Shown here: positions 20,063-36,235 of the stretch, piece after piece
How positions within the stretch are numbered: the stretch's first letter is position 1
Layout of the letters: every line of letters begins with the position of its first letter
Source of the DNA: Basidiobolus heterosporus B8920
Taxonomy: Eukaryota > Basidiobolomycota > Basidiobolomycetes > Basidiobolales > Basidiobolaceae
DNA length: 54,592 nucleotides
Direction: 5' to 3'
Assembly (NCBI GenBank): GCA_000697455.1
Contig: JNET01034446.1
Location: 1-54,592, forward strand
Position numbers and translations under genes: made by a program
Notes under the pieces: generated by a model
The model's input: only the letters and a program-made list of their open reading frames with translations
What the model was told of the DNA's origin: nothing
The model's database searches: none

Positions 20063-22905
20063 ATGACTTCTCCAATTCGCAGTAGAGCGGCGCCAAGATC
20101 GCCCTCTACACTCTTCCGCTCAGAGGACATGTCCCTCGTACAGCTCTTCATTCCTGCCGAAGTAGCTCAGTCTACAGTTTCTCGTCTTGGAGAACTTGGT
20201 GCTATTCAATTTAGAGACGTATGTAACACACATCTATATCATTATTTCTTTGTGTTCCAACTAATTATTCGGTTTCTTTTCTTCAGCTCAATTCTGATAC
20301 TACCACTTTCCAAAGAGCTTTTGTTAAAGAAATCAGAAAGTTGGATGATATCGAAAGAAAATTACGTATGTCTTCGAAGATATGCCTTCATTGAATTGAT
20401 TTCACTAATGCAAGTTATAGGTTTCTTGTCTCATCAATGTGAAAAGTTACAACTTCCCATTCAGCCTCCCGCTTCTGGAAAGTACCTTTCTAGACCGAGA
20501 GCTCCTCAAGAAATTGTCGATCTAGAGGAGACTGTTTTCCAACAAGAGGGACGGGTTCTTCAGATGAACAGCTCGCACGAGACTTTGCAAAAAAGATTGA
20601 CCGAGTTAGTTGAAATCAAACATATCGTTCAACAAACTAACAAATTTTTCCGTGAGGTGTGTGTTTTCCAACTCTCTAATTGATTTAGACATTTCACTGA
20701 TGTTCTCTTGTGGTATAAATTAGGGTGAAGATCATACTGAGCAAATTCGTCGTAATTCTGTTGATGAATCCTCAGCTCTACTTCAGCCTGATGTTGAAAC
20801 TGGACCTACCAATGAACTTCAACATCCTAACGTTGGGTATGTGTGGTAGTGACTATCAGAATCCTACTTTCTTTGATCCTAATATTGTCATTTCGTGGTT
20901 TAGTTTTGTTTCCGGTGTCATCGCTAGAAGTAAAATCAACGTTTTCGAGAGAATTTTGTGGAGAGCTCTTCGTGGTAACCTTTACATGAACTATGCCGAA
21001 ATTCAAGATCCGTTGATAGATCCTGAAACAGACGATTCTGTTGAGAAAAACGTCTTTATTATTTTCGCTCACGGTCAAGAGATTCTCAACAAGATTCGTA
21101 GAGTATCGGAATCTATGGGTGCTACTCTTTATAGTATTGAGGAGAATCCTGAAGATAGACGTGCCCGCGCGCTTGACGTTGCTAACAAAATTGAGGACTT
21201 GAACAATGTAATAATCTATTTCAAGTGTGTCATTAAGCGTCCATCCCCTAAACTCGTTTATTTCCTATTCTAGGTTCTTTATAATATTAATCAAACTCGT
21301 CGTGCCGAGCTTATCAAAGTTGCCGAGAATTTAGCTACTTGGATGACTGTCGTCAAGAAAGAAAAGGCCGTTTATGACACCATGAACAGATTCATATACG
21401 ACTCCAACCGGAAATGTCTGATTGCCGAAGGGTGGTGTCCAAGTGGCTCTATCGATGAGGTCCAAGAGGTCCTGCGCGCAGATTCGACTCAATCAGGCGG
21501 TAATGTCGGTTCGGTTCTTACCGAATTGCATACCACTAGAGAACCACCCACCTATCACCGTACCAACAAGTTTACTGAAGGTTTCCAGAATATCGTGGAT
21601 GCTTATGGTGTAGCTCGTTACAAGGAAGTCAACCCTGGTCTCTTCACCATCATTACTTTCCCATTTTTGTTCGCGGTCATGTTCGGTGATCTGGGACATG
21701 GTATGATCATGACCTGTTTTGGTCTTTACTTATGCCTTAACGAAAAGAAGCTCAAATCATTCGACGGCGGTGAAATGTTCGGCATGGTATTTGGTGGGCG
21801 CTATCTAATTCTTCTTATGGGTTTCTTTTCCATGTTTACTGGATTGATCTACAACGATATTTTCTCGCAAAGTCTGTCCATCTTCCAATCTGGATGGGTG
21901 TTCCCCACCCCAGTTGCAAACCAGACCACCGAAGCAATTTCCGTTGGAGTTTATCCGTTTGGGCTTGATCCGGCTTGGCATGGTACCGATAACTTCCTGA
22001 TCTTTACCAACTCATACAAGATGAAGATGTCCGTTATCTTCGGCATTTGTCAGATGACTTTGGGTATCATCTTGACAATTTACAATTACAAGCACTTCAA
22101 TAAGGAATTTAGTATTTGGGCTGAGTTCGTGCCTCAGATTCTGTTCTTAGAGTCCATTTTCGGCTACCTCGTTATCACCATCATTTACAAGTGGAGTATC
22201 GATTGGTTTGCTACTGATGCCAACGGTGTCCCTCTCCATAACAGTCCACCAAGTCTCTTGAATATGCTGATTTACATGTTCCTAAGCCCAGGAAACGTAG
22301 AACCTAAAGATCAACTTTTCGCAGGACAAGGCCAACTACAATTCTCACTCCTCATCATAGCACTTATCTGCGTCCCATGGATGCTTCTCACCAAGCCCTA
22401 TATATTGAAGAGAGAGCATGATAAGATCGTCGCTGCCGGATACGCCCCTGTTCAAGGTAACGATAGAGAATCTGAAGCTGAAGCTGACGGAAACGATGAT
22501 GGGGACAAGGATGGCCATGATGATTACGATTTTGGTGAAATCATGGTACACCAGGCTATTCACACCATCGAGTTCTGCTTGAATTGTATCTCCAACACAG
22601 CATCCTACTTGCGTCTGTGGGCCCTTTCGCTAGCACATGCTCAATTATCTGAGGTTCTCTGGGACATGACTTTGGTTCCTTCATACATGTTGCCAGCATC
22701 ATTCCTTCCAATCAGCTTGACCATCGGTTTTGCCGTATGGTTTTCGCTCACTGTTAGTATTCTACTTTGTATGGAAGGCCTTTCTGCGTTTTTGCACGCT
22801 CTTCGTCTACATTGGGTTGAGTTCAATGGTAAGTTTTACCAAGGAACTGGTGAGCAATTTGAACCTTTTTCGTTCAAAAGTGTTCTGGAGAACTCCAATG
22901 AATAA
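20063..22905 (+). CDS. V-ATPase V0 subunit a, copy B (5 introns)
   Basis: Exons 20063-20218, 20287-20365, 20421-20656, 20724-20836, 20904-21207 and 21274-22905 give 839 residues. The first five introns sit at the same positions and phases as in copy A (exon sizes 156, 79, 236, 113 versus 116, and 304 nt). The last exon is a fusion of what are exons 6-14 in copy A. Motifs match copy A, including [14 protein letters not shown] and [19 protein letters not shown] (essential Arg at 743), with an acidic cytosolic loop (ESEAEADGNDDGDKDGHDD) before the last membrane helices. Start: first ATG, MTSPIRSRAAPRSPS. Copies A and B are the closest pair by position and gene structure. Confidence 0.93.
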
Positions 22906-23356: not shown

Positions 23357-25159
23357 ATGGACACAGAAGACTATCGTGAAGCCAAGATCCAGTGGGTTAC
23401 GGGACAAACCGGCTCCACCATTTCAGAAATCAATGCGGTGATTTTGGTAAACTTGGTAAGTTCCTTTAAAGTAATAACTGAGTAACTAACTTCCCTTCCC
23501 AAGTTAACTTTTCACCCATTCAGTGCGCCTTTTTCTTATGGACTTGTTGTCAAAGGTTCGGTTTCCCTAGAGCACATACACCTTTAACTCACTGGTTTAG
23601 CTGGGAGTTTTTCCTTTTCCCCTTGGTCTCACTTGTGTCACAAACGTTTACGCAAGGGAATAAATTCCTTATCCCTGGACTGTTACTTACAAGCATCGGT
23701 GTGTACGTTAAGGCAAAAAAAGAGAACCTTACCTCGAACCCTACCTCTCCTTCTCCAGATGTCTCCGAAGAGGTGTACAAAAAAAGTCTTACCCCTAACA
23801 AGATCTCCCGAAAATCATACATCAGCGTTTATCGTGCACTCATGATGCTTCTTACTTGTGTCGCGATCTTGGCTGTTGATTTTCCTATCTTTCCTAGACG
23901 CTTCGCTAAGGTGGAAACGTTTGGTACTTCTTTGGTAAGAAAGTATTTTTGATATTTTAAAGGGTCTCTTTTACCTTCTTCTATTCTTCTTGTTTGGTTA
24001 ACTCGATAGGATTTAGATGGATTTGGGGGTTGGATCGTTTGTATTTTCTGCTGGAGTAGTCGCGGCTAAACATACTTTACCCGAATTTACGGGTAAACGG
24101 GGATCATTTTTGAAAGAGATGCAGAAATCTTTGAAGAGTGCGTTCCCATTGTTGGTCCTTGGTTTCGCTAGACTTTTGATGGTGAAAGGCATCGAATATC
24201 AGGTATTTTGGACGATCTTTGATGGATTCTTCTTGAATTGATCTTACTCTCCTTTACGCTTTTCTAGGAACATGTCACTGAGTACGGGGTCCATTGGAAT
24301 TTCTTTGTCACCCTTGGATTCTTGCCAATCTTTGTGACCCTCAGTAGAGGGTTGGCGAAAGGAGCCCGTTTTGCTGGCCCGCTTATCATTCTTGGTAGGG
24401 AAGATCGGGGAGTAACCATGGTTGTTCGTGACTAACATGATTGAAATAGGTTACCAGGTGGCCCTGTGGTATGGTGTGGAAGATTTTATCCTTAACGCAC
24501 CGCGAGTGGATCTCTTGAGCATGAACCGAGAGGGGGTGTTTAGCTTCTTGGGTAGTGATTGATGAGTGCTTTATCGTGCGACACATGGGATATTAACCTT
24601 ATCTCTCTATCTATAGGCTATCTGTCTATCTTCCTTGTGGGCTTGGAAACTGGATCCATCGTTCTTCCAGATCCACCCACCTACAAACAACGTCAAAAGC
24701 AACCGATGGTGCTGTTGATCGCTGCGGTGGTTATGTGGACTTTGTTCCATGTGGTTAGAGGATTCCTCGAAATCGAGGTTTCCAGACGAATGGTTGGATT
24801 TATTCTATGGGAACATACTTTGAATTACTCTAGTAATAACCTACTTTAATTAGGCTAACCTCCCGTATGTGCTCTGGGTGGTGGCGTTCAATCTAACCCT
24901 GGTGTTGGTTATCATGTCCATTGAACGTTGCATTAATCCTAATGTGTTGAGTCCAGAGGTTCCTGAACTTCTGGCCAGTTTGAACCAGAACGGATTGACA
25001 GTGTTCCTAGTGGCCAATGTTCTTACGGGATTGATCAATCTTTCCATGCGAACTATCTACACCGCACCATGGCTGTCGTTCGTCGTGTGTAGTGGTTATT
25101 TATTGGTGATATGTGCTGTTGCGGTCTGGATGAAATTGAATGGTCTACGTCTTCGATAA
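23357..25159 (+). CDS. GWT1: GPI-anchor inositol acyltransferase, GWT1/PIG-W family
   Basis: Gwt1 acylates the inositol of GlcN-PI in the endoplasmic reticulum during GPI-anchor synthesis and is the target of the antifungal manogepix. Seven exons: 23357-23455, 23524-23934, 24017-24202, 24268-24394, 24450-24551, 24617-24792, 24854-25159, giving 468 residues, normal for the family. The N-terminus has the family motif [10 protein letters not shown] multi-pass membrane profile follows, with [32 protein letters not shown] and [16 protein letters not shown], and the C-terminal [17 protein letters not shown]. The sixth intron uses a GTTGGA donor, supported by the conserved RRMANLPY junction. The start was chosen because [15 protein letters not shown] aligns with the family N-terminus. 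Confidence 0.93.
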
Positions 25160-25279: not shown

Positions 25280-25640
25280 TCAACACTGTTCTCTTGAGTT
25301 TCTGGAGGAGAGGAGAAATGGGTTGAGTTATTGAGGCAGTGCTGGGTTATACTATTTGACTAGTGACATACCTGGCATATTGGCTGCTAGAAATACACTT
25401 TTCCAGTTGTTCATGACTTGCGCAACTACTGTGTTATGAAGGTTGGTTAGAAACCAAAGTTTTCGACGGACAAAGGTTGCTCTTACCGGTGTACCCGCGG
25501 TTCATCTCATCCATACGGTAGCATAGTTCCGTGAACTGCAAATCTAGTTTGTGCGACAAATCACAGATGTATCGTAGGTTTTGATACTCAGTCTTTTTCT
25601 CTTCCACTTGGGCTCGTAAATTCGTTGTAGCGTTCGACAT
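25280..25640 (-). CDS. DAD2: DASH complex subunit Dad2 (kinetochore-microtubule coupler)
   Basis: DASH/Dam1 forms rings on spindle microtubules and tethers kinetochores. The exons are 25640-25487, 25429-25372 and 25301-25280, giving 77 residues; the last exon codes for only seven residues and part of an eighth. The protein is one small helical domain: QVEEKKTEYQNLRYICDLSH, then YRMDEMN, then VVAQVMNNWKSVFLAA, which matches the Dad2 pattern of a heptad helix, a short loop and an alanine-rich 'VA..L.NW..V.RA' helix. It is short but comparable to small fungal Dad2 proteins. It is divergent from the pseudokinase gene at 26039. The identification rests on pattern recall; the exact 3' end is less certain than the first two exons. 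Confidence 0.75.
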
Positions 25641-26038
25641 ACTTTGAGACAGTACAGCTTGACTGGATGGTAGTATTTGTGAATAGGTTCGAAGTAAACA
25701 AACCTGTTGATTGGTGGGTGGCCATCTTACTGGATCATTCGGATCGGATCTTATTAGTGCAGTTTTAATCGGGATGTATAAATCAACCTTTTATCAACTC
25801 GACCGCTTTGGGTAAGTGACTGGGTAATGATGAATGAGACTGGTTTCAGCATGTGTAGTTAGTATGCGAACTCAGGGGAATGCTCACTGTTGAAGACGTG
25901 AGAATCTTGCTTGTCTCTTGTTGTGCGGTTTGACCACTCCTAAAAAAATAGGAAGCCGCGGAACTGAGCTGAAAATAGAGCTTCTTTGAACTATCCTCAC
26001 TTCCTTGTCTAGGCTTTTCATAATTGAAGAAGGCCAAA
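25641..26038. promoter_or_regulatory. Divergent promoter between DAD2 and pseudokinase gene
   Basis: This 398-bp spacer between two divergent start codons should hold both promoters. I see no clear TATA or CCAAT element and no additional gene. Confidence 0.4.
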
Positions 26039-27681
26039 ATGTCACTTCAAGTCAAACCTCTTTCTTCCCCGGAGAAATATGATAAGGTTTCCCCACCCAA
26101 TTCCCTTGATAACCCATACCCACTCTCTATGAAGAAAACCCAAAAAGCCACTACTTCCAAAGGACTAAGGCTTTCCACCAAATTATTCTCACGACTACAA
26201 ATATCCAGTTTAAGTGAAGCACCTAATATCGTTGGTAGTCCACTTCACTATGCTAAATATGAAAAGAAATTCATTTGTTTCACTCCATAGAAGCCCCATC
26301 CAAAACCCAAAAAACGAAAGTTAGACAAGCCAAAGAACGTAGAGACCGAAGAAAAGAAAAGAAGGAAGAGTATGTGGCCCGTTTCTGCTTAACTAATTGA
26401 AAGGGAGTTTTCTTGGTTGACTCTCTACCCTTCTAGAATGTCAAGACTTTGGACTACCTACAAATACACGTTTGCAAAAGAGAAAAAACAAAAGAAGTCG
26501 AAGCAATAATGATAAAGAGACTGAGGATCTACTGGCTTTACATTGGTTGTCTTTGTCCTCTGAACGCTCACTTGGCACTCAAACCCATTCGACAACTACA
26601 GAGGATAAGCATAAAAGTATGATAAAGAGTCATTTAACTTCGGATAGAAAAGGCAAAGGCAGGATGCGTTGGTTCAAAGAGAAACCTGACGACTGGTACA
26701 AACTAGGTCAGGAGATTCGAGGTTGCTCGTCAACTGATATATCGTACAGTCAGGTTGCCCTCAAGCTGAGAGAGTTAGGAGCTCAGAAGAACATCAAATT
26801 CTACAGTGTGGGGGAGATCCCAGTGAACAAGGGCAACACTGTTAACATATTTTATGATGATCCGGCAATTAGTATGGACTCCATACTAGTGGAATTGGTA
26901 TGTTTGATTAGCCTAAAAGGCGCAAAACGAATAGCCAAAGTCATTTCAGTTCTAGAGGATGAGTGGGGACATCTCATTGGACTGACTATGGTTAGATACC
27001 AAATGACCCTGGAAGAATATCTTCAGGTTGAGCGAAGAGTTACGGCGCGACAAAAGTATAAATTAATCAAGGACATGGTTGCTGCTGTTAAAGTGCTTCA
27101 TGATCAAGGGATTGCACACTGCAGCCTATCTGATGCCAATTTCATGGTAAATGAAGTGGACGGGATACTGCTAAAGGATTATTCCCCGCGCCCTAGAGCC
27201 ACGCTGGTCAACTATAAAAAAGCTCGCTTCATCAGAAATGATTTGAGTCTTGATGAACAGTTTCTATTTCGCAAGAGCCACCTCCCTGATCCTGACCAGG
27301 CCCCCACGGGAAGCAGGTATGGTTTGTTGTGATTCCATAATTGAACTACTTGTAACGCTTTATACATGATTGGACTTCGTGGCCGTTAGCAAAGATAACT
27401 CTACCGCTGAAGATATCAACTCTCTAGGAAGGCTAATATGGTACGCAATGAAGCTGCAAAAGCCTGGGGGAAATCCAGAATCAAGCCAAATAACTGAAGA
27501 TAGTTATCGACTTCGAACCGAGATTTACTGGGCTTTTCCTGGAATCAAATGTCGGGAATTGTTGGTTGGGTGCTTGTTGACCGAGGGCACTGGCCGCTGG
27601 AATATCAATAGGTTAAGCCAGTTCATTTGCAGTAAGAGAAACCGGAGTCAGTTAATTATGGAGCTTGACGGGGAGTTCTAG
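26039..27681 (+). CDS. Short pseudokinase-like protein
   Basis: Exons 26039-26230, 26291-26369, 26437-27316 and 27390-27681 give 480 residues. An alternative pairing (donors at 26235 and 26381) gives 485. The N-terminus is basic and lysine-rich, probably nuclear. Residues about 195-480 resemble a protein kinase: YKLIKDMVAAVKVLHDQGIA leads into the catalytic loop, but HRD is HCS (about 318-320), DFG is NYK (about 349-351) and no ATP-binding Lys or glycine loop is evident. The C-lobe (EDINSLGRLIWYA, then RTEIYWAFPGIKCRELLVGCL) is recognisable. Catalysis is therefore unlikely. It is a tail-to-tail paralogue of the large gene at 27866-32988, from which only the kinase part is shared. Start: first ATG, MSLQVKPLSSPEK. 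Confidence 0.72.
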
Positions 27682-27865
27682 AGGATGCATTATTCTATGT
27701 GCCATTTTGTGTATTTATTCATCGGGTCTTTGTGATGAGTGTGTGTAAGTGTATGTGTGCGTGTGCGTGTGCGTGAAGAGAAAATCTGAATAAACTAAAT
27801 CCAGCCCCCAACTCTAGAAAGTTATAAAGTATGCTAGACAAAGTAACCCTGCCCTTGAAGCCAAT

Positions 27866-30800
27866 CTACATAAGAGGTCTGCTGAAACTACTCGCAAGCT
27901 CCGAAATTATTTGTTTTCGATTTTGTTGATTCCAAATCCATTCAGAAAGCTGGCCAATACTCCAACGATCATCGGCACGAACACTAAGACAACCAAATAT
28001 TAACTCGCGGCATTTGCTGCCTGAGATGGCCTTACAGATCTCAGTACGAAGACGACGTTCATCACTAGCTATTTGGCGTAAACCTACAATGTCGTCTTCA
28101 AAGACACCACCCCAAGGGTTTTGCTGCGTAGAAATTCGCCAAAGCAGAACTCCAAGTGAGTACATATCCTCGGCAAATGGGTCAATGCTGTGAGGTAATA
28201 GGTCGGTGTCTTGTTTACTTCTTGGAAGAGTTTCAATAGATCTAGAGGAAAGCTAAGGATTAATCCCAAGTGGTCTGGGCTTCGATCTAGTAACACATTA
28301 CCTATAGTATTTGTAGTCGTGGTCAGGGGAAACTCGGATTCTAGGTAGAAGCCACTCTTCCTCGGGTTCTAGTAGATTCACGCGCCATTGTTGAATATCC
28401 TCTTTTCGGGTAAATCGAGCCTTTCTGAAATCGATTAGAACGACCTTGGGTCTAGGTGTACCGTCCTTGAGAAAGACTCCCTCTATCTCATTGACCATAA
28501 CATTGACTTCTGACAAGTTGCGATGGGATATTCCTTGATCATGCAGCGCCTTCACAGCAGCAATCAAATCACGCATCAGTTTGTACTTTTGATGTGGCGA
28601 AATAACACTGTGATTGTGAAGGTATTGCTTTAACGTTTTTTGATAACGATTCATAATCAATCCCACCGGGCTACCATTCTTGCTTTCTAAGATCGTACGG
28701 ATTTCACCGACACGCTTTACTCCTCGAAGTTTCAATAGACATGCGAGCTCTGTTAGCCGGCTTTCGGCTAATTCTGACTCCATATTATTGTAGAATTGAA
28801 TTACTGTTGAAGGATCACTCGCGTTGATGTGAACATTTTTGGAACATCCTACAACATAGTTTTGCGATAAGCTTTGTGATATACTTTCATCAAGGTGTCT
28901 AAAGCTAACACCGAGACTTAGCCCCGCTTCCTTAATTCTGAGGTAAATAACTCTTGCTTCTTGTGGCAATTGGCTCTTGTCGAGGGCCTCAATATCCCTC
29001 TCCGTCAACCTTGTTGAGTCTCTGGAAGCTTGCACATTCTTCTGGATTTGGCTAATCAGCTCCTTAAAGGATGCTTGCTCTGCAATAACATTAAATGTAT
29101 TCTCAACACATTCTTCCAATTGAGAAAATGTTGCATCGCGGGCACTACTAGGGACATCCTCCTCAGAGTTTTCTTCCGTGTCTGTAGACTCATCAAGAAT
29201 TTGTAGCTTAGCTGCGCTTCTTTTGGTGTTTAAGGTATTGCCGAGGTGATTAGTACTTGGACTCTTTTTAGCTTTTCTTGCTTTCGTGGCTGGAGTATTC
29301 TCCGACGTTGGCTGTAACACGATTTTGGTCGGATCTCGTATGATTTCTGAATGTCTCTTCTCAACTATATCCGGGTCCCAATGATTCTCCGTGTTCAAAA
29401 TAATCCGTGCCAACTGATCCTCGCCTAGAGTACGCGGATCATACTTGACTGGTCGAAACGGTTTAAGGAGATATAAAGTGCGGAACTTATTGGATACCTC
29501 GGCATCAAATTTGAATGCTTTCAACACCACTACTTTGATCCAAGATTTCATGGAGTCCAGTGACTGTAATATCTCCACGTCTTCTATGTCGTGCCTCTTT
29601 CCAATAGGTTTCGTTACAAAACAGTCAGCTTGCAACCGAACATTACCTTTGGCCGAAGCTGGACTTTTCCTAACATTTGTGAATACCAATAGAAACCCAC
29701 TCCGAGCATCCCTGGTTAATTCCAATGCTGTTCGGTTGTGTGACACGAAAACTCGAAGCACTGTAGGGAGTAAGCCATTTGTTGGAGTAGTAAGCACATC
29801 AGGAGTAACCCCAAAACTCTCAAAAAATGGGTAATGCACTGAGGCACAAACTTCTTTCTCCAACAATCCACGGCTGCTACGAGCTACCTCTTCAGGTGTG
29901 GCGAGTTTTACAATGTAAAAGGTACTTTCATCCGTACATTCCAAGCTTCTAGCTGTATTCACCAATTCCTCAGCTGAAAATGGAGAAATTTCTTGGTTCT
30001 CTTGTTGATCAGCTTCTTCTGGTGGATGACTTCGCATATCCCACGCAAGACTTTCGAATAGATGAACAAATTCCTTGGAGATACGATAAATTTCATTTGT
30101 ATTATCATAGCTCACCCTAACTGCCTCAGCCACTCTCTTTAGATCATCTATGAATTCGCTGAACGTGTTGTACCTGCCATGCCAAAGCTTTCGCTCCACA
30201 ATCGCAAGATTCAACCCTCCTGGTGGTGGTTCATAGAGATGGATAGTCCCACATGGCGAAATGAAGGCTCGGCTCAATGCTGTTGCAAATAGCCGGTCTA
30301 AAATGTATGTTGCTTTGCGAAAAACACTTGGTTCAGGGAATTTCATTGGATTGGACGTCACCTCTACATCTAAAGACATCTGCTCGGATCCTTTCAAAGT
30401 GGATAAATCTTTATCGCAGACTTCCGATGTGTCCACAGACATTGAGGAGTCTACCTGCTCGGGTGTCACTTTTAACAGTGAAGAGCACACATTTTTAGAA
30501 TCCTCCATACTAGAAGCTATCGATTCCGTTTCTAGAGAGGAGACTGCTATAGGGTTTCGAATATCCATCTCATGAGCTGAGCTCTTACTTTCCAACGATT
30601 GCAAGGTTTCAGTATCACTCCCGACAAAGTTCGGAGATACGGATGTTGAGTTCTCTTGGATTATTTGATTATCAGTACTTGTGTAATACTCTTTCGATAT
30701 TTTCGAAGTGGTGAGACTCTCGGAATTTTGTGTAGATGGCGAGTGGCTACTAAAAAAGGTTGACGAGGCGATCTCAAGCCTCTCGTGTGATTTATGCATA

Positions 30801-32988
30801 TCAGCATGTGATACCATCTGAAGCTCTTGAGTAGCCTCCATCAAATTCGTATCTTGTATGTTATCTTCTGTTGTAGGCTCATGGATCTGACTCGTCAATG
30901 GAATGCTTTCCGTATGTGTCTTGATGTTAGATATAGCATCCTGAGCTTTGGGTACCGTCTTCTCATCAGAGTTACTGTAGACTGCCTCTTTTTCTGTATG
31001 CAAATTTTTAATCAAAGGTTAGGGTCGTGAAGTTGAATGTAACAACAAACCGCTTTGCTCACCAGAAGCTCTGTTTAACTCGTACTCAGGTAGATCAGGC
31101 ATTGTGACTAGCATATCTTCGCTCGCTTTGGATTTGGCTTTAGCTAAAGGAGCATGCACGTCTATGATTTCGGGTGGTGTGGTTACAATGGGTCTACTGT
31201 CCAACTCTTTTACTTTTTGCATTCCCGTGGTGGCGGACGCAACACCATCAATATCAGTTTCTTGTAAACCTATCAAGTCGTGAGAGATATCAACTGCTCT
31301 AAGCCCATGTATCGTGCTATTGATCGGTGCTAAGTCTCCATCCTTCAACTTTTCCACGAAAGCATCTGTCTGCACGGTATCTATCTCCTCAAAGTTGTGA
31401 GACTTAATTTCGGAAGGTATCTCAACTACACGTTTGATGGTGCTTGGGATTGGTGTCTTTATCTCTTGGATCGAGGTTTTGCCATGCTCAGCAACCTCAT
31501 TCTCATGTAATTGTATACTATTTGTATCCTCGTGTTTTTGAGCGGCGGATTTATATGAGGAAACATTTACGATCTTTGATATTGTAACTTCAGGCAGCAG
31601 AGCAGTCGTATTTTTGATGAGTGCCATGTCGCCTTCTTGATCTTCAAACATCGTTTCCAACTTATTAGCTTTTTGAACTAGATGACTTAGAGACATACAT
31701 TTATAACCGACGACTAAACAAGAAAAGTCAAATACCTTTTTTTTTCTTTTTCTTTTTCTTCTTTTTGTCTTCCTTCTCTTGCTCTTGCTTCTTATCTTCC
31801 TTCTTTGTCTTCTCCTTCTGCTTTGTCTCCTCCTGTCCCTTGTTTTTCTTCTTTTTCTTTTTCCTTGGCTCCTCAAGATCGGCTACTGTATCTTTCGTCG
31901 TTTTGAAGTCCTCACTAACGTGCATTTCTTTGGCTCTTCGTTTCTTGGATTTCTTAACTGAAGCTATACTATTTTCGGGGATCACAAGGTGAGAGTCGGT
32001 ACTTTTATTTTTGTTGTTCAGCTTCGTCTTGAGGATGTCTTTTTCACCAGTGCTATTTAAGTGAAGTGCACTCTGATGAACAGATTTCTTTGGCTTCCCT
32101 CCATAAGAAGTCGAAGGGCTATTCTGGGTATGCTGTGCATCAGCTGGTTGGAATTTTGAGGTTGTCGATGGGGATTGTTTCAAAAGGGACTGGGCTAGCT
32201 TCGTTTTGGCTTGAATATTTTTGTTAGATTGACTGGTCTTAGCTATCGCTTTAGGGGCCGCTGATCTGACGTTGGAATATTTTTCTTTTCCTTTGCCCAA
32301 ATCTGGATCCTCTGATTTTGAATATCTGTGCAGTAGATGCTGCGATGTTTTAGCAATGATCTTCTGATTGACAGCAGAATCAATGGTTTCGTCTAGAAAA
32401 CTTGCATCAAGACTGGAAATATCTAATGTATCTGCACCCTTCTTAACCCCGCTGTCGTGCTTCAACACGCCAATTTTTGTCTTTCTTGACTTGAGCTTTA
32501 TTTTCTTCTTCGGAATATCAAGCTGACCATTGCCTTGAGAGACAGCTACGTGTAGAGAGGTCTTTTGCATTTCTAGAAATTAGAGAATCTAAGTAAATTT
32601 AGGGTAACTAATCCCTAAACATTCAAATGAAATACCTTGCATGTTTGCTTTGTGAAGGTTCTCTTTCTTCTTCTGTGAAGTGTTTACTTTATTTTTGGAA
32701 ACGAGTTTTGGACTTGTACGGATCACTCCTCGTTTCTCAAAAAGCTGTCTTTTAGATAATGGTAATGTTCCTAGAATAGCTGAGAAACCTTTCTCTGAAC
32801 TACGAGATTTTCGGGGAGTGAGTTGAATTTCATCGGAAGAAGCGACTTTGCCACGGACAACACCTAAGGTTGAGGGAGGGAGAGAGTGAGTGAAACTGGC
32901 CGAAACGAATATACCGACATACTCTGAGATGTAAAAAGAAACGTCACTTACCGTCGTCTTGTGCAGATTCCTTTATCTTCTTGGACAT
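27866..32988 (-). CDS. Large bromodomain-like plus pseudokinase protein
   Basis: Exons 32988-32952, 32863-32636, 32572-31736, 31677-31063, 30993-28302 and 28241-27866 join in frame to 1,594 residues. The N-terminal third is basic and lysine-rich, ending in a (K)n run near 360. An acidic Ser/Thr-rich linker follows. Residues about 801-890 read like a bromodomain: NLAIVERKLWHGRYNTFSEF, then IDDLKRVAEAV, then IYRISKEFVHLFES. The WPF shelf is missing and YN is replaced by YD-N. The C-terminal kinase-like domain (about 1305-1594) has HRN for HRD (about 1396) and DFR for DFG (about 1427), but keeps the loop Asn and the C-lobe (EDMYSLGVLLWRI, DDRWSIGQLSEW). It is probably a nuclear scaffold or reader with a weak or dead kinase. 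I know of no named family with this order. Confidence 0.75.
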
Positions 32989-33727
32989 AGATCATTCACT
33001 ATCCAGTTAATATAATAGCATGAATCAAAGAGAGTAGAAAGGTATATTGCGCTATACTAGATTAAACTGATAGATAGAATATACTGGATTGAGGCTAAAT
33101 TACAATTACTTGAGGCAGTTATTAATTGGATGACTTGGTATAAATAGAGAATTCATCAGGGAAGCATCGGTCAACAATTCAGTTAATCAAGGAATTAAGC
33201 TAAACCGGATAATCACATATCTTTATACCAACTACTCAACACAAAACTAAATACATGTAACTCCAAACGAATATAATGAAGAGGACTCGGAGGTTTAGTG
33301 TATACATACATGGAACGTTGTATTGTCAGCATATATATATATGTATATAGAATGTATTGTCAGCTCGCTGAACGGACGAGGGCTTTCCCGAAAAATCTCC
33401 GATCAACGTACACTGACTGCTTTTTCATCATTGGTAATAGCATTGACTCATGCTCGATAATCCAAAGCCGATACTCCTTAACAGCAACAACTTAATCTGA
33501 CAATAGATGCAAGATCTTGGGTTTCCTGCATATAGGCTAAGAATTAGAGGTTGTGGCAAACAAATACCCTTAAGGTGGAGCCAATCACGCTTGTCCTCCA
33601 TTAGAGAAGCGCATGGCTTATATATCCTCTACTTGTGTATCTCAACCTGCCCCTTCTCTATCTTTTTTGCTTCCTGAATTGCGGAGGACATCAGCCTTTG
33701 TTAGACTTGTTAATAATCTCATTAGCC
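32989..33727. promoter_or_regulatory. Divergent promoter with CCAAT and TATA-like sites
   Basis: This 739-bp spacer lies between the large bromodomain-like gene and V-ATPase copy C. A CCAATCA at 33591-33597 is about 130 bp before the copy C start codon and is followed by tatatat near 33618. A (ta)n stretch lies at about 33330-33348. No gene is seen. Confidence 0.4.
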
Positions 33728-36235
33728 ATGGCTCCTTCAACACTATTTCGTTCAGAAGAGATGTCTCTTATCCAACTCTTTATCCCCAGTGAAGTGGCCC
33801 GTATAGCCGTTTCCCATCTAGGCGAAAAGGGGCTCGTTCAGTTCCGTGATCTCAACCCGAGTCTAAGTTCGTTCCAACGCTCTTTTATCTCGGAAATCAA
33901 GAAATTGGACGACCTCGAACGCCAACTACGGCTTCTATCCGAAGAGGCTGAAAAGCAGGGAATTCCTATCTCTACGTGTGACTTGGATAGCCCTGAGATC
34001 TCTCGTATTCATTCTATGAGAGAAATTGATGAACTTCATGAAACTCTGAATGACAGTGAGCAGATGCTGCTTCAATTGAATTCCTCCTATGATCTACTGC
34101 AGAAACAATATTTTGGATTGATTGAGCAATATTCCATTCTACAAGAATCCAGCATCTTCTTTCAAGAAGACAGATTCCAAGAAAATGAAAGGATTCCTTC
34201 CTATGTCGATACTTCCCAGCTACTTCCCCCCACTGATATCGAGCCTGGAGTTGATGCCCTAGACAACAACCATTCCAACGTAGGTTATGTTACTGGTGTT
34301 ATATCTCGACGGAAATTTAACACCTTCGAGAGAATCCTATGGAGGAGTTTACGGGGTAATCTTTACATGAAGTATAGTGAGATTCAAGAGCCCATGTGGG
34401 ACCCCTACACTAGTAATTTACTTGAGAAGAACGCTTTTGTAATTTTCTCTCATGGACAAGAACTTTTGGGGAAAATCAGGAAAACTGCCGAAGCAATGGG
34501 TGCCTCTTTGTACTCCATTGATGATACTGTTGAGGCAAGAAATGCTACAGCCCTTCGTATTTCTGCTAGAATCGAAGACATAAAAACTATTATGGATACC
34601 AACACCCGGACTTGTCGCGCCGAGCTTATGAAAATCTCAGCTAACCTTCCTACATGGTTCACCATTGTCAAGAAAGAAAAAGCTCTTTATTACGTTATGA
34701 ACTTATTCAACTATGATCGAAGCCGTAAATGCCTGATTGCAGAAGGCTGGTGTCCTACGAGTGAACTGAAAGCTTTGCAATTCGCACTTCAAGAGTCTTC
34801 CGAAAATGCAGGAACTTCTGTGTCTCCCATCATGACCGAGCTACAAACCAAAAAAATACCACCTACATTCCATCGCGTTAACAAGTTTTCGGCTGGTTTT
34901 CAAAACATCGTAGACGCATATGGTGTAGCAAGATATAGAGAAGTCAATCCCGGTCTTTTCACCATCATAACTTTCCCTTTTCTGTTTGCAGTTATGTTTG
35001 GTGATCTGGGCCACGGAGTCCTTCTAAGTGCATTCGCCGGTTGGATGTGTTATAAAGAAAGGTCTTTGAGAAAATTCGATGGTGGCGAAATGTTTGCCAT
35101 GTTGTTTAATGGTCGATATATCATTCTCCTGATGGGGCTTTTCTCCATCTACACAGGTCTGATCTATAATGACATCTTCTCCCGAGGTATGTCACTTTCC
35201 AAATCTAGCTGGGAATGGCCCACTCCCACTGCACTGAGGCAGCCTATTGATGCTAAGCATGTTGGAGGAACTTATCTCTTTGGTCTGGATCATGCATGGC
35301 ATCACACTGACAACTTCCTACTCTTCACTAATTCATATAAAATGAAGATGTCGGTCATCTTGGGAGTCTTACAAATGTCCTTGGGGATTATCCTTAACAT
35401 ATTCAATTATGTCAACTTCGATCATGCCTTCGCTATTTGGGCCGAATTCGTTCCTCAAATACTCTTTTTGGAATGTATCTTTGGATATCTAAGTGTGACC
35501 ATTATTTATAAATGGTTGACAGATTGGAGCACTAGTTCAATTAGTCCTCCCAGCTTGTTGAATATGCTTATCTACATGTTTCTAAGCCCTGGATCGGTTG
35601 AAACGGCGAATTCATTGTACCCGGGCCAGGGTACTGTTCAGCTGGTTCTCATCGGTATTGCGGTTATTTGCATTCCATGGATGCTTTTAGCAAAGCCCTT
35701 CGTGCTCAAAAAAAGGCACGCTATTAAGATTCGAAGCGGATATGTAGCAAGCGAGCCAGTCAAACCAGATAATCTTCCGAAGACTGTTGGCGAAGACGGC
35801 TCTGAAGTTACGAGTCAAATTTTTACGGATGAGCTTGAGGAGGAAGAAGAATTCGACTTTGGCGAAATAATGATTCATCAGGTCATTCATACAATTGAGT
35901 TTTGTTTGAACTGTATCTCCAATACGGCATCTTATTTACGTCTTTGGGCACTCTCTCTTGCACATGCTCAGCTCTCCGCAGTGCTTTGGGAGATGATATT
36001 GCAGCTTTGTTACTCGATGGCATTCCCCTTGAACATTATTAGTATATTTGTTGGTTTTACTATTTGGTTTGTTCTTACTATAGGCATCCTATTGATTATG
36101 GAGGGTCTTTCCGCCTTTCTTCACGCTTTACGCCTTCACTGGGTTGAGTTTAATGGAAAGTTTTACCAAGGGTCAGGGTATAAATTCGAGCCCTTCTCGT
36201 ACAAAATGTTGTTCAGTAACTCTGGAGAAGACTAG
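33728..36235 (+). CDS. V-ATPase V0 subunit a, copy C (intronless)
   Basis: A single uninterrupted exon encodes 835 residues with the full subunit a layout: N-terminal FRSEEMSLIQLFIP, cytosolic helical arm, [33 protein letters not shown], eight or so membrane segments and [15 protein letters not shown] with the essential Arg at 738. It is more divergent than copies A and B. It lacks a short luminal stretch (WSTSSISPPSLLNM instead of the longer loop with TDxNG), and its acidic cytosolic loop has a different sequence (TDELEEEEEFDFGE). The lack of any intron, where its relatives have 13 and 5, suggests retroposition or complete cDNA-driven intron loss. It remains fully open, so it is not a pseudogene. 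Start: the ATG directly before APSTLFRSEEM. Confidence 0.93.
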   Translation: MAPSTLFRSEEMSLIQLFIPSEVARIAVSHLGEKGLVQFRDLNPSLSSFQRSFISEIKKLDDLERQLRLLSEEAEKQGIPISTCDLDSPEISRIHSMREIDELHETLNDSEQMLLQLNSSYDLLQKQYFGLIEQYSILQESSIFFQEDRFQENERIPSYVDTSQLLPPTDIEPGVDALDNNHSNVGYVTGVISRRKFNTFERILWRSLRGNLYMKYSEIQEPMWDPYTSNLLEKNAFVIFSHGQELLGKIRKTAEAMGASLYSIDDTVEARNATALRISARIEDIKTIMDTNTRTCRAELMKISANLPTWFTIVKKEKALYYVMNLFNYDRSRKCLIAEGWCPTSELKALQFALQESSENAGTSVSPIMTELQTKKIPPTFHRVNKFSAGFQNIVDAYGVARYREVNPGLFTIITFPFLFAVMFGDLGHGVLLSAFAGWMCYKERSLRKFDGGEMFAMLFNGRYIILLMGLFSIYTGLIYNDIFSRGMSLSKSSWEWPTPTALRQPIDAKHVGGTYLFGLDHAWHHTDNFLLFTNSYKMKMSVILGVLQMSLGIILNIFNYVNFDHAFAIWAEFVPQILFLECIFGYLSVTIIYKWLTDWSTSSISPPSLLNMLIYMFLSPGSVETANSLYPGQGTVQLVLIGIAVICIPWMLLAKPFVLKKRHAIKIRSGYVASEPVKPDNLPKTVGEDGSEVTSQIFTDELEEEEEFDFGEIMIHQVIHTIEFCLNCISNTASYLRLWALSLAHAQLSAVLWEMILQLCYSMAFPLNIISIFVGFTIWFVLTIGILLIMEGLSAFLHALRLHWVEFNGKFYQGSGYKFEPFSYKMLFSNSGED

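What the first reader, a model, noticed from the sequence alone, without database searches (positions are those of the whole stretch)
27866..32988. Bromodomain-like module joined to a pseudokinase in one 1,594-residue protein
Six exons join in frame. Residues about 801-890 follow the bromodomain helix pattern (NLAIVERKL..G.YNTFSEF..D, then Y....IYRISKEF..LFE), with the WPF shelf lost and the acetyl-lysine Asn replaced or shifted (YDN). The C-terminus is a kinase fold with HRN and DFR instead of HRD and DFG. Apart from TAF1 and claims for BRD proteins, bromodomain-kinase pairings are rare, and a reader plus dead kinase in fungi is not a family I know. The Lys-rich N-terminus suggests nuclear or chromatin location.
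Basis: partly seen in the sequence, partly recalled or inferred. Interest (0 to 1): 0.82.

Follow-up and report, generated by a model that had tools for sequence, protein, structure and literature searches.

The report
Fungal bromodomain protein with degenerate kinase
A gene in a Basidiobolus-like fungus makes one protein that joins a chromatin-reader-type domain to a damaged protein kinase; it belongs to an apparently undescribed family of fungal bromodomain kinases in which the key ATP-site lysine seems to have moved, as in WNK kinases.

Summary
Six minus-strand exons (32988-27866) join to 1,594 aa; exon 5 alone carries the bromodomain-like part and the kinase as far as DFR, so the pairing does not rest on splicing. 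AlphaFold2 with a 67-row alignment gives bromodomain helices at 794-894 and a kinase N-lobe and catalytic loop. A profile of four Basidiobolus-type bromodomains finds mainly bromodomains in the PDB, weakly (best 6e-4). A middle domain (930-1081) has no PDB sequence match.
It is not a one-off: the same order occurs in a paralogue here, two Basidiobolus ranarum proteins and 62 of 68 further protein clusters, the named ones all Mortierellaceae. There the bromodomain keeps its Asn and the kinase HRD/DFG. Family-wide the beta-3 'VAIK' Lys is Gln and an invariant Lys sits in the Gly-rich loop, a WNK-like arrangement (inferred). In the gene of the finding the Asn column is Tyr and HRD/DFG are HRN/DFR; HRN is shared with its B. 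ranarum sister. Best reading: a chromatin-bound pseudokinase partner of intact paralogues. Ten paper searches, several with capped lists, listed no paper on the family.

The parts
27866..32988 (-). Gene A: six exons (32988-32952, 32863-32636, 32572-31736, 31677-31063, 30993-28302, 28241-27866), 1,594 aa
   Evidence: Exon join without stop; the intron-3 acceptor is ambiguous outside the folded domains (1,591-1,606 aa)
28302..30993 (-). Exon 5: single open frame carrying bromodomain, middle domain, linker and kinase as far as DFR
30029..30331 (-). Bromodomain-like domain, residues 794-894; Asn column = Tyr868, then Asp869-Asn870
   Evidence: PF00439 20.2 bits; four main helices, ten-residue pLDDT means 87-93 except two blocks of 64 in the ZA loop; profile A6 vs PDB gives mainly bromodomains
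29468..29923 (-). Unannotated middle domain, residues 930-1081, motif RHDI at 1039-1042
   Evidence: 51.6 bits to a profile of 67 relatives; pLDDT block means 48-94; no PDB sequence match at E<=10; no Pfam family matched by more than 1 of 10 members at E<=1
28302..28888 (-). Kinase domain, exon-5 part (residues 1275-1469): N-lobe, catalytic loop, activation segment
27866..28241 (-). Kinase domain, exon-6 part (residues 1470-1594): C-lobe
   Evidence: 50% identical to paralogue C over 323 residues of the kinase
28838..28840 (-). Lys1291 in the Gly-rich loop (G-C-S-K-N-V-H), candidate WNK-like ATP-site lysine
   Evidence: K in 69 of 69 readable relatives; lies just before strand beta-2 in the model, in a block of mean pLDDT 65
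28796..28798 (-). Gln1305 at the beta-3 'VAIK' lysine position
   Evidence: Q in 69 of 69 readable relatives; inside strand 518-522 of the model
28517..28525 (-). HRN (1396-1398) in place of HRD
   Evidence: sequence; shared with P0002
28424..28432 (-). DFR (1427-1429) in place of DFG; seen in this gene only among the rows read
   Evidence: sequence
26039..27684 (+). Gene B, convergent neighbour: kinase-only relative, no bromodomain found, more degenerate (HCS, NYK, Tyr in the Gly-loop Lys column); 5' exons uncertain
   Evidence: PF00069 30.3 bits, cut-off 31.7

Best explanation
The gene encodes a member of a fungal family of probably chromatin-associated bromodomain kinases: a long N-terminal part without known domains, one bromodomain, an unannotated alpha/beta middle domain, a disordered linker and a C-terminal protein kinase. 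In the Basidiobolus lineage the gene duplicated. Some copies (C here, P0001 in B. ranarum) keep HRD. The lineage of gene A and P0002 carries HRN, and A also DFR, and most likely works as a pseudokinase: it still folds, may still bind nucleotide, and acts as scaffold or allosteric partner of the intact paralogues. Shown: gene structure from sequence, domain order, homology, conservation and loss of motifs. Predicted: the folds. Inferred: nuclear location, chromatin binding, WNK-like catalysis, pseudokinase partnership.
For: One exon carries both domains. Co-linear 1,430-aa paralogue C with HRD/DFG: 50% identity over 323 kinase residues, 41% over bromodomain plus middle domain, with an intron inside the same Arg codon of the kinase in A and C. 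P0001 (partial record) and P0002 of B. ranarum are co-linear. 62 of 68 clusters carry a kinase and a PF00439 domain. P0003 bromodomain PF00439 E 3.6e-10. Gly-loop Lys 69/69, Gln at beta-3 69/69, alpha-C Glu 69/69, HRD Asp 64/65, DFG Gly 65/65, bromodomain Asn 66/68 among the 70 database proteins, gaps left out. A and P0002, both HRN, are sisters with 100/98 support, and A keeps 69-73% identity to P0002 in each of the three domains. Model: bromodomain helices and kinase fold.
Against: No expression, binding or activity data. A second Lys, three residues after the beta-3 Gln, is also invariant in the relatives (69 of 69) though Asn in A, so the WNK-like reading is not the only one. The catalytic-loop Lys position is Ser in 65 of 66 readable rows. 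Pairing of A with C is a guess. Against a bromodomain-only profile of the non-Basidiobolus rows A scores 14.9 bits and C and P0002 are not listed. HRN in A and P0002 could have arisen twice. The genome held is 8.1 Mb in 428 contigs and may be incomplete.
Confidence: 0.55

Rival explanations
1. Gene A (like B) is a decaying duplicate on its way to a pseudogene, with no function of its own.
For: Two catalytic changes in A; a more degenerate kinase-only relative lies next to it; two V-ATPase subunit genes lie on either side.
Against: Intact 1,594-codon frame with GT-AG introns; 65-73% identity to P0001 and P0002 in each of the three domains; HRN is shared with its B. ranarum sister.
Confidence: 0.15
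2. The kinase of A is still active despite HRN/DFR, at a low level, in the way some 'pseudokinases' later proved active.
For: Asp1427, Asn1403, alpha-C Glu1321 and the Gly-loop Lys1291 are kept; PMC4718504 (passages read) names active kinases that lack canonical residues, such as WNK, PRPK and Haspin.
Against: Loss of the HRD Asp and of the DFG Gly together.
Confidence: 0.12
3. The bromodomain-like module of the Basidiobolus-type members is a pure protein-protein module with no acetyl-lysine binding; its role is dimerisation or docking of the kinase. (Compatible with the best explanation for gene A.)
For: The Asn column is Tyr in A, C, P0001 and P0002, the BC region reads YDD or YDN, and the ZA loop is two residues shorter than in P0003.
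Against: Some bromodomains without the Asn bind ligands (recalled, not tested here); the fold appears kept.
Confidence: 0.5
4. The lysine that serves ATP is the conserved Lys three residues after the beta-3 Gln, not the Gly-loop Lys, so the kinase is not WNK-like.
For: Lys at this position in 69 of 69 readable relatives and in C.
Against: It falls just after the modelled beta-3 strand (518-522) and only 13 residues before the alpha-C Glu; A has Asn there but keeps the Gly-loop Lys.
Confidence: 0.3

Closest known systems
WNK kinases
   Same: No Lys at the beta-3 'VAIK' site; a Lys in the Gly-rich loop/beta-2, as described for WNK1 Lys233 (PMC4718504 and PMC6215617, passages)
   Different: Gln at the beta-3 site, Ser at the catalytic-loop Lys position, bromodomain and middle domain attached; the PDB rows shown by sequence are led by TTK, ULK1, RIPK1 and BRSK2, and WNK is not among those 60 rows each
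TAF1 (TFIID subunit 1)
   Same: Bromodomain and claimed kinase activity in one chromatin protein (PMC9138534, passages)
   Different: [quoted passage not shown] here there is one bromodomain and one protein-kinase fold
Canonical bromodomains (TIF1-alpha/TRIM24, BPTF, MLL1)
   Same: Bromodomain helices; the family profile hits TIF1-alpha at E 2.4e-12; the Basidiobolus-type profile hits a putative bromodomain protein (9tsm, 6e-4) and MLL1 (2.1e-3)
   Different: Basidiobolus-type members lack the acetyl-lysine Asn and any WPF; the other relatives keep the Asn
FunK1 / Pkinase_fungal (PF17667; the name FunK1 is recalled)
   Same: Fungal kinases; the catalytic-loop exon of C scores 25.3 bits against a cut-off of 24.1
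   Different: Only a stretch of about 50-60 residues around the catalytic loop matches; A, P0001, P0002 and P0003 score below the cut-off
Linnemannia elongata BGZ90_010128 (P0003) and other Mortierellaceae proteins
   Same: Same order of bromodomain, middle domain and kinase
   Different: Intact bromodomain Asn, HRD and DFG; public names such as 'Receptor-interacting serine/threonine-protein kinase 1' look like automatic labels (inference)

Membership tests
Bromodomain (PF00439) | Profile match over the curated cut-off | tested here: inconclusive
   A 20.2 and 21.4 bits on two lengths of the protein (cut-off 21.7), C 22.0; 23.3 bits for A's stretch in the genome search; P0003 40.1
Bromodomain (PF00439) | Four-helix arrangement (Z, A, B, C) | tested here: met
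   Four main helices at 794-894 in the predicted model, with profile matches to solved bromodomains; bundle handedness was not measured
Bromodomain (PF00439) | Acetyl-lysine-anchoring Asn | tested here: not met
   Tyr868 in A; also Tyr in C, P0001, P0002; Asn in 66 of 68 readable relatives
Protein kinase (PF00069) | Profile match and kinase fold | tested here: met
   [not shown]
Active protein kinase | HRD Asp and DFG motif | tested here: not met
   HRN, DFR in A; HRD, DFG in C
Active protein kinase | Phosphotransfer activity | not testable with these tools
   Needs purified protein
WNK | Beta-3 Lys absent, Lys in Gly-rich loop/beta-2 | tested here: met
   K 69/69 and Q 69/69, strand positions; by sequence and predicted strands only, contact with the alpha-C Glu not measured; another invariant Lys lies at Q+3
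WNK | Closest relationship to WNK sequences | tested here: inconclusive
   WNK not among the rows shown; those lists show 60 of 1,200 and 60 of 847 matches
TAF1 | Tandem bromodomains plus acetyltransferase domain | tested here: not met
   Pfam scans of A in three overlapping parts and of whole P0001-P0003 show one bromodomain and a kinase, no acetyltransferase
FunK1 (PF17667) | Profile match over cut-off along the domain | tested here: not met
   19.2 bits for A against 24.1; the C exon reaches 25.3 over 60 residues only

The most novel reading that the evidence does not exclude
Probability: 0.3. Interest if true: 0.8.

Novelty: new variant of a known kind. Interest (0 to 1): 0.6.

Why it matters
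A protein kinase physically joined to a single bromodomain would couple acetyl-lysine reading directly to phosphorylation, something mostly claimed for TAF1 and BET proteins and disputed there (recalled). A second lineage with the ATP-site lysine in the Gly-rich loop would let the WNK arrangement, and its proposed halide sensing, be tested in another kinase. The HRD and HRN paralogues of the Basidiobolus lineage give a natural kinase-pseudokinase comparison.

Tried and rejected
Chance open frame or chimaeric gene model: rejected, because exon 5 alone carries both domains, and paralogue C and the relatives repeat the order.

'Unique to this genome': rejected. In some searches only the 7,998 and 7,993 candidates sharing most words were scored, and only proteins of 0.55-1.75 times the query length were considered, so 68 is a lower bound and absence from other fungi is not shown.

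Viral origin: the viral-contig scan with A1 (two peptide patterns, 48 stretches) gave no relative; tblastn of P0001 in the phage records gave no match.

Single-sequence fold of P0039: mean pLDDT 35.6, unusable. Submitting it without an alignment was my oversight and cost one of two jobs, so the middle domain could not be folded and searched alone. The Foldseek list (50 rows shown, led by CK2) and the VIA list are filled by the kinase and barely test the rest; nothing is claimed about the middle domain's fold being new. The 'viral' structure library was not searched.

HMM-HMM alignment of the family N-lobe to canonical N-lobes of this genome: only 6 short N-lobes were recovered and the alignment covered alpha-C only (E 0.54), so it neither supports nor opposes the beta-3 register. 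In one search the five alignments shown (all TTK) place the Gly-loop Lys at the third-Gly position but put gaps around the beta-3 Gln. For P0001 the PF07714 match (1023-1158 to 26-161) fits Gln1031 at the Lys position as I recall it, while the PF00069 match starts after it (1034 to 34) and would be one residue off if extended.

NCBIfam: weak hits to bacterial kinases (best 44.5 bits against a cut-off of 460) and to Bud32 (17.4 against 125); none over its cut-off.

Bromodomain-only profile of the non-Basidiobolus rows (66 of 68) against the Basidiobolus-type proteins: A 14.9 bits (best stretch only 8.9), P0001 17.1, none for C and P0002; bromodomain plus middle domain together 69-91 bits for A, C, P0001 and P0002. 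0 of 1,000 shuffled sequences were listed. Those E-values refer to this small set.

Paper searches (listed of found): (0 of 0; 15 of 17; 4 of 4; 10 of 12; 12 of 659; 20 of 106; 10 of 33; 10 of 32; 8 of 24), 87 (9 of 9). None of the listed titles or abstract starts describes this family. Only listings were seen, except for passages of PMC10593226, PMC4718504, PMC6215617 and PMC9138534. The library is open-access papers only.

Rows dropped: alignment A4 for the model used 66 of the 70 P proteins (P0004, P0037, P0049, P0056 left out); the tree used 23 of 73 sequences (18 of the 68 non-Basidiobolus rows) and is midpoint rooted; gene B has a very long branch (4.11) and the tool warns that gC joins the long Mortierellaceae branch.
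Full report
Observation. The window is a whole contig (C362) of an assembly held as 8.14 Mb in 428 contigs, which may be incomplete, so counts of relatives in this genome are lower bounds. On the minus strand, six exons with GT-AG introns join to a 1,594-residue protein. Of 20 splice combinations tried, three stay open to the stop at 27866, and these differ only in the intron-3 acceptor (1,591, 1,594, 1,606 aa). Exon 5 (30993-28302) is one open frame, residues 574 to 1469, and contains the bromodomain-like part, a middle domain and the kinase as far as DFR. The joining of the two domains therefore does not depend on splicing.

Relatives. Searches of the genome with the bromodomain part and with the kinase part found two more relatives. 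C (contig C407, 5805-1029 minus, 1,430 aa in my model, with one acceptor chosen among several) is co-linear with A: 50% identity over 323 kinase residues and 41% over bromodomain plus middle domain. Its kinase has HRD and DFG. An intron lies inside the same Arg codon of the kinase in A and C. B (window 26039-27684, plus strand, convergent with A) is kinase-only as far as found, with HCS and NYK. The protein database holds two co-linear B. ranarum proteins, P0001 (partial) and P0002, and, through an alignment search, Linnemannia elongata P0003 (1,387 aa; PF00439 E 3.6e-10) and P0004. A search with P0003 gave 68 clusters, P0003 and P0004 among them, 62 of them with both a kinase and PF00439 in their precomputed domains. 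The named ones belong to genera that the NCBI taxonomy lists under Mortierellaceae; two (P0037, P0067) are unnamed. In the tree A is sister to P0002 with 100/98 support, then P0001, so the host is Basidiobolus or a near relative (inference).

Active sites. In an alignment of the 70 database proteins with A, B and C, gaps left out: Gly-loop Lys K in 69 of 69, also A (Lys1291) and C, but Tyr in B (alignment of B uncertain there). Beta-3 'VAIK' Lys site Gln in 69 of 69, also A (Gln1305) and C. Alpha-C Glu in 69 of 69, also A, B and C. HRD Asp in 64 of 65 (P0002 is Asn); A is Asn, B Ser, C Asp. DFG Gly in 65 of 65; A is Arg, B Lys, C Gly. DFG Phe is Tyr in P0001, P0002 and B. The catalytic-loop Lys position is Ser in 65 of 66 rows and in A, B and C, and the Lys three residues after the beta-3 Gln is K in 69 of 69 and in C but Asn in A. 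The bromodomain Asn is N in 66 of 68 rows and Tyr in P0001, P0002, A and C. In the model, Lys1291 comes directly before strand beta-2 (block pLDDT 65), and Gln1305 lies in strand beta-3. For P0001 the PF07714 match puts Gln1031 at profile position 34 if ungapped; that this is the VAIK Lys is recalled, and the PF00069 match starts after that point and would be one residue off.

WNK comparison. PMC4718504 (passages) states that in WNK1 the missing beta-3 lysine is replaced by Lys233 from beta-2 and that this arrangement was proposed to allow halide binding; PMC6215617 (passages) places the WNK lysine on the Gly-rich loop. The fungal family shows the same two features in every readable database row. 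It is not shown to be a WNK: WNK is not among the PDB rows displayed, and those lists were cut. So it may work like a WNK; membership is undecided. A rival reading uses the Lys at Q+3; it falls after the modelled strand and is absent in A.

How it most likely works. Shown: domain order, homology, conservation. Predicted: folds. Inferred: the Mortierellaceae members read acetyl-lysine through the bromodomain and phosphorylate nearby chromatin or transcription proteins. The A/P0002 lineage carries HRN, so it is most likely a pseudokinase that keeps nucleotide-pocket residues (in A: Lys1291, Glu1321, Asn1403, Asp1427) and regulates or scaffolds an intact paralogue such as C. The DFR change was seen only in A and rests on one assembly; an assembly error cannot be excluded. 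A does not look like simple decay: it keeps 69-73% identity to P0002 in each domain and an intact frame.

Novelty. The Pfam pairing is already visible in precomputed domain lists of Mortierellaceae proteins. Ten searches of the open-access library (several lists capped) listed no paper about such a family. TAF1 combines bromodomains and claimed kinase activity but with a different build (PMC9138534, passages). I rate this a new variant of a known kind: known domains in an apparently undescribed family, with a WNK-like twist and an unannotated domain.

Noticed in passing
window 26039-27684 (+): Kinase-only relative (gene B) convergent with gene A, with HCS and NYK in place of HRD and DFG and Tyr in the Gly-loop Lys column; very long branch in the tree.
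   Followed up: partly
window 21274-22905 (+) and 33605-36235 (+): Two V-ATPase 116-kDa (subunit a) genes flank the region, PF01496 816 and 1,037 bits; a local duplication may have shaped the A/B neighbourhood.
   Followed up: partly
window 23482-25159 (+): GWT1-family gene split by short introns (PF06423 in the two pieces scanned).
   Followed up: no
window 25437-25790 (-): Small frame resembling DASH complex subunit Dad2 (PF08654, 25.1 bits, cut-off 26.9).
   Followed up: no
window 29468-29923 (-), and the same region of P0001-P0003: Conserved middle domain with a KP.G..HD..V motif, shared by Basidiobolus-type and Mortierellaceae proteins, without PDB sequence match or consistent Pfam match.
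   Followed up: partly
P0004, P0067, P0069, P0070 (database proteins): Family members with a bromodomain but no kinase Pfam hit. P0067, P0069 and P0070 still align in the kinase N-lobe but have no HRD, so they look cut short; P0004 has no kinase part at all. Gene-model ends, splice variants and true losses were not separated.
   Followed up: partly
G000 contigs C422:25086-25244 and C52:7780-8101: Two further bromodomain places in this genome (59.2 bits; 42.7 and 24.3 bits in two pieces), not examined.
   Followed up: no
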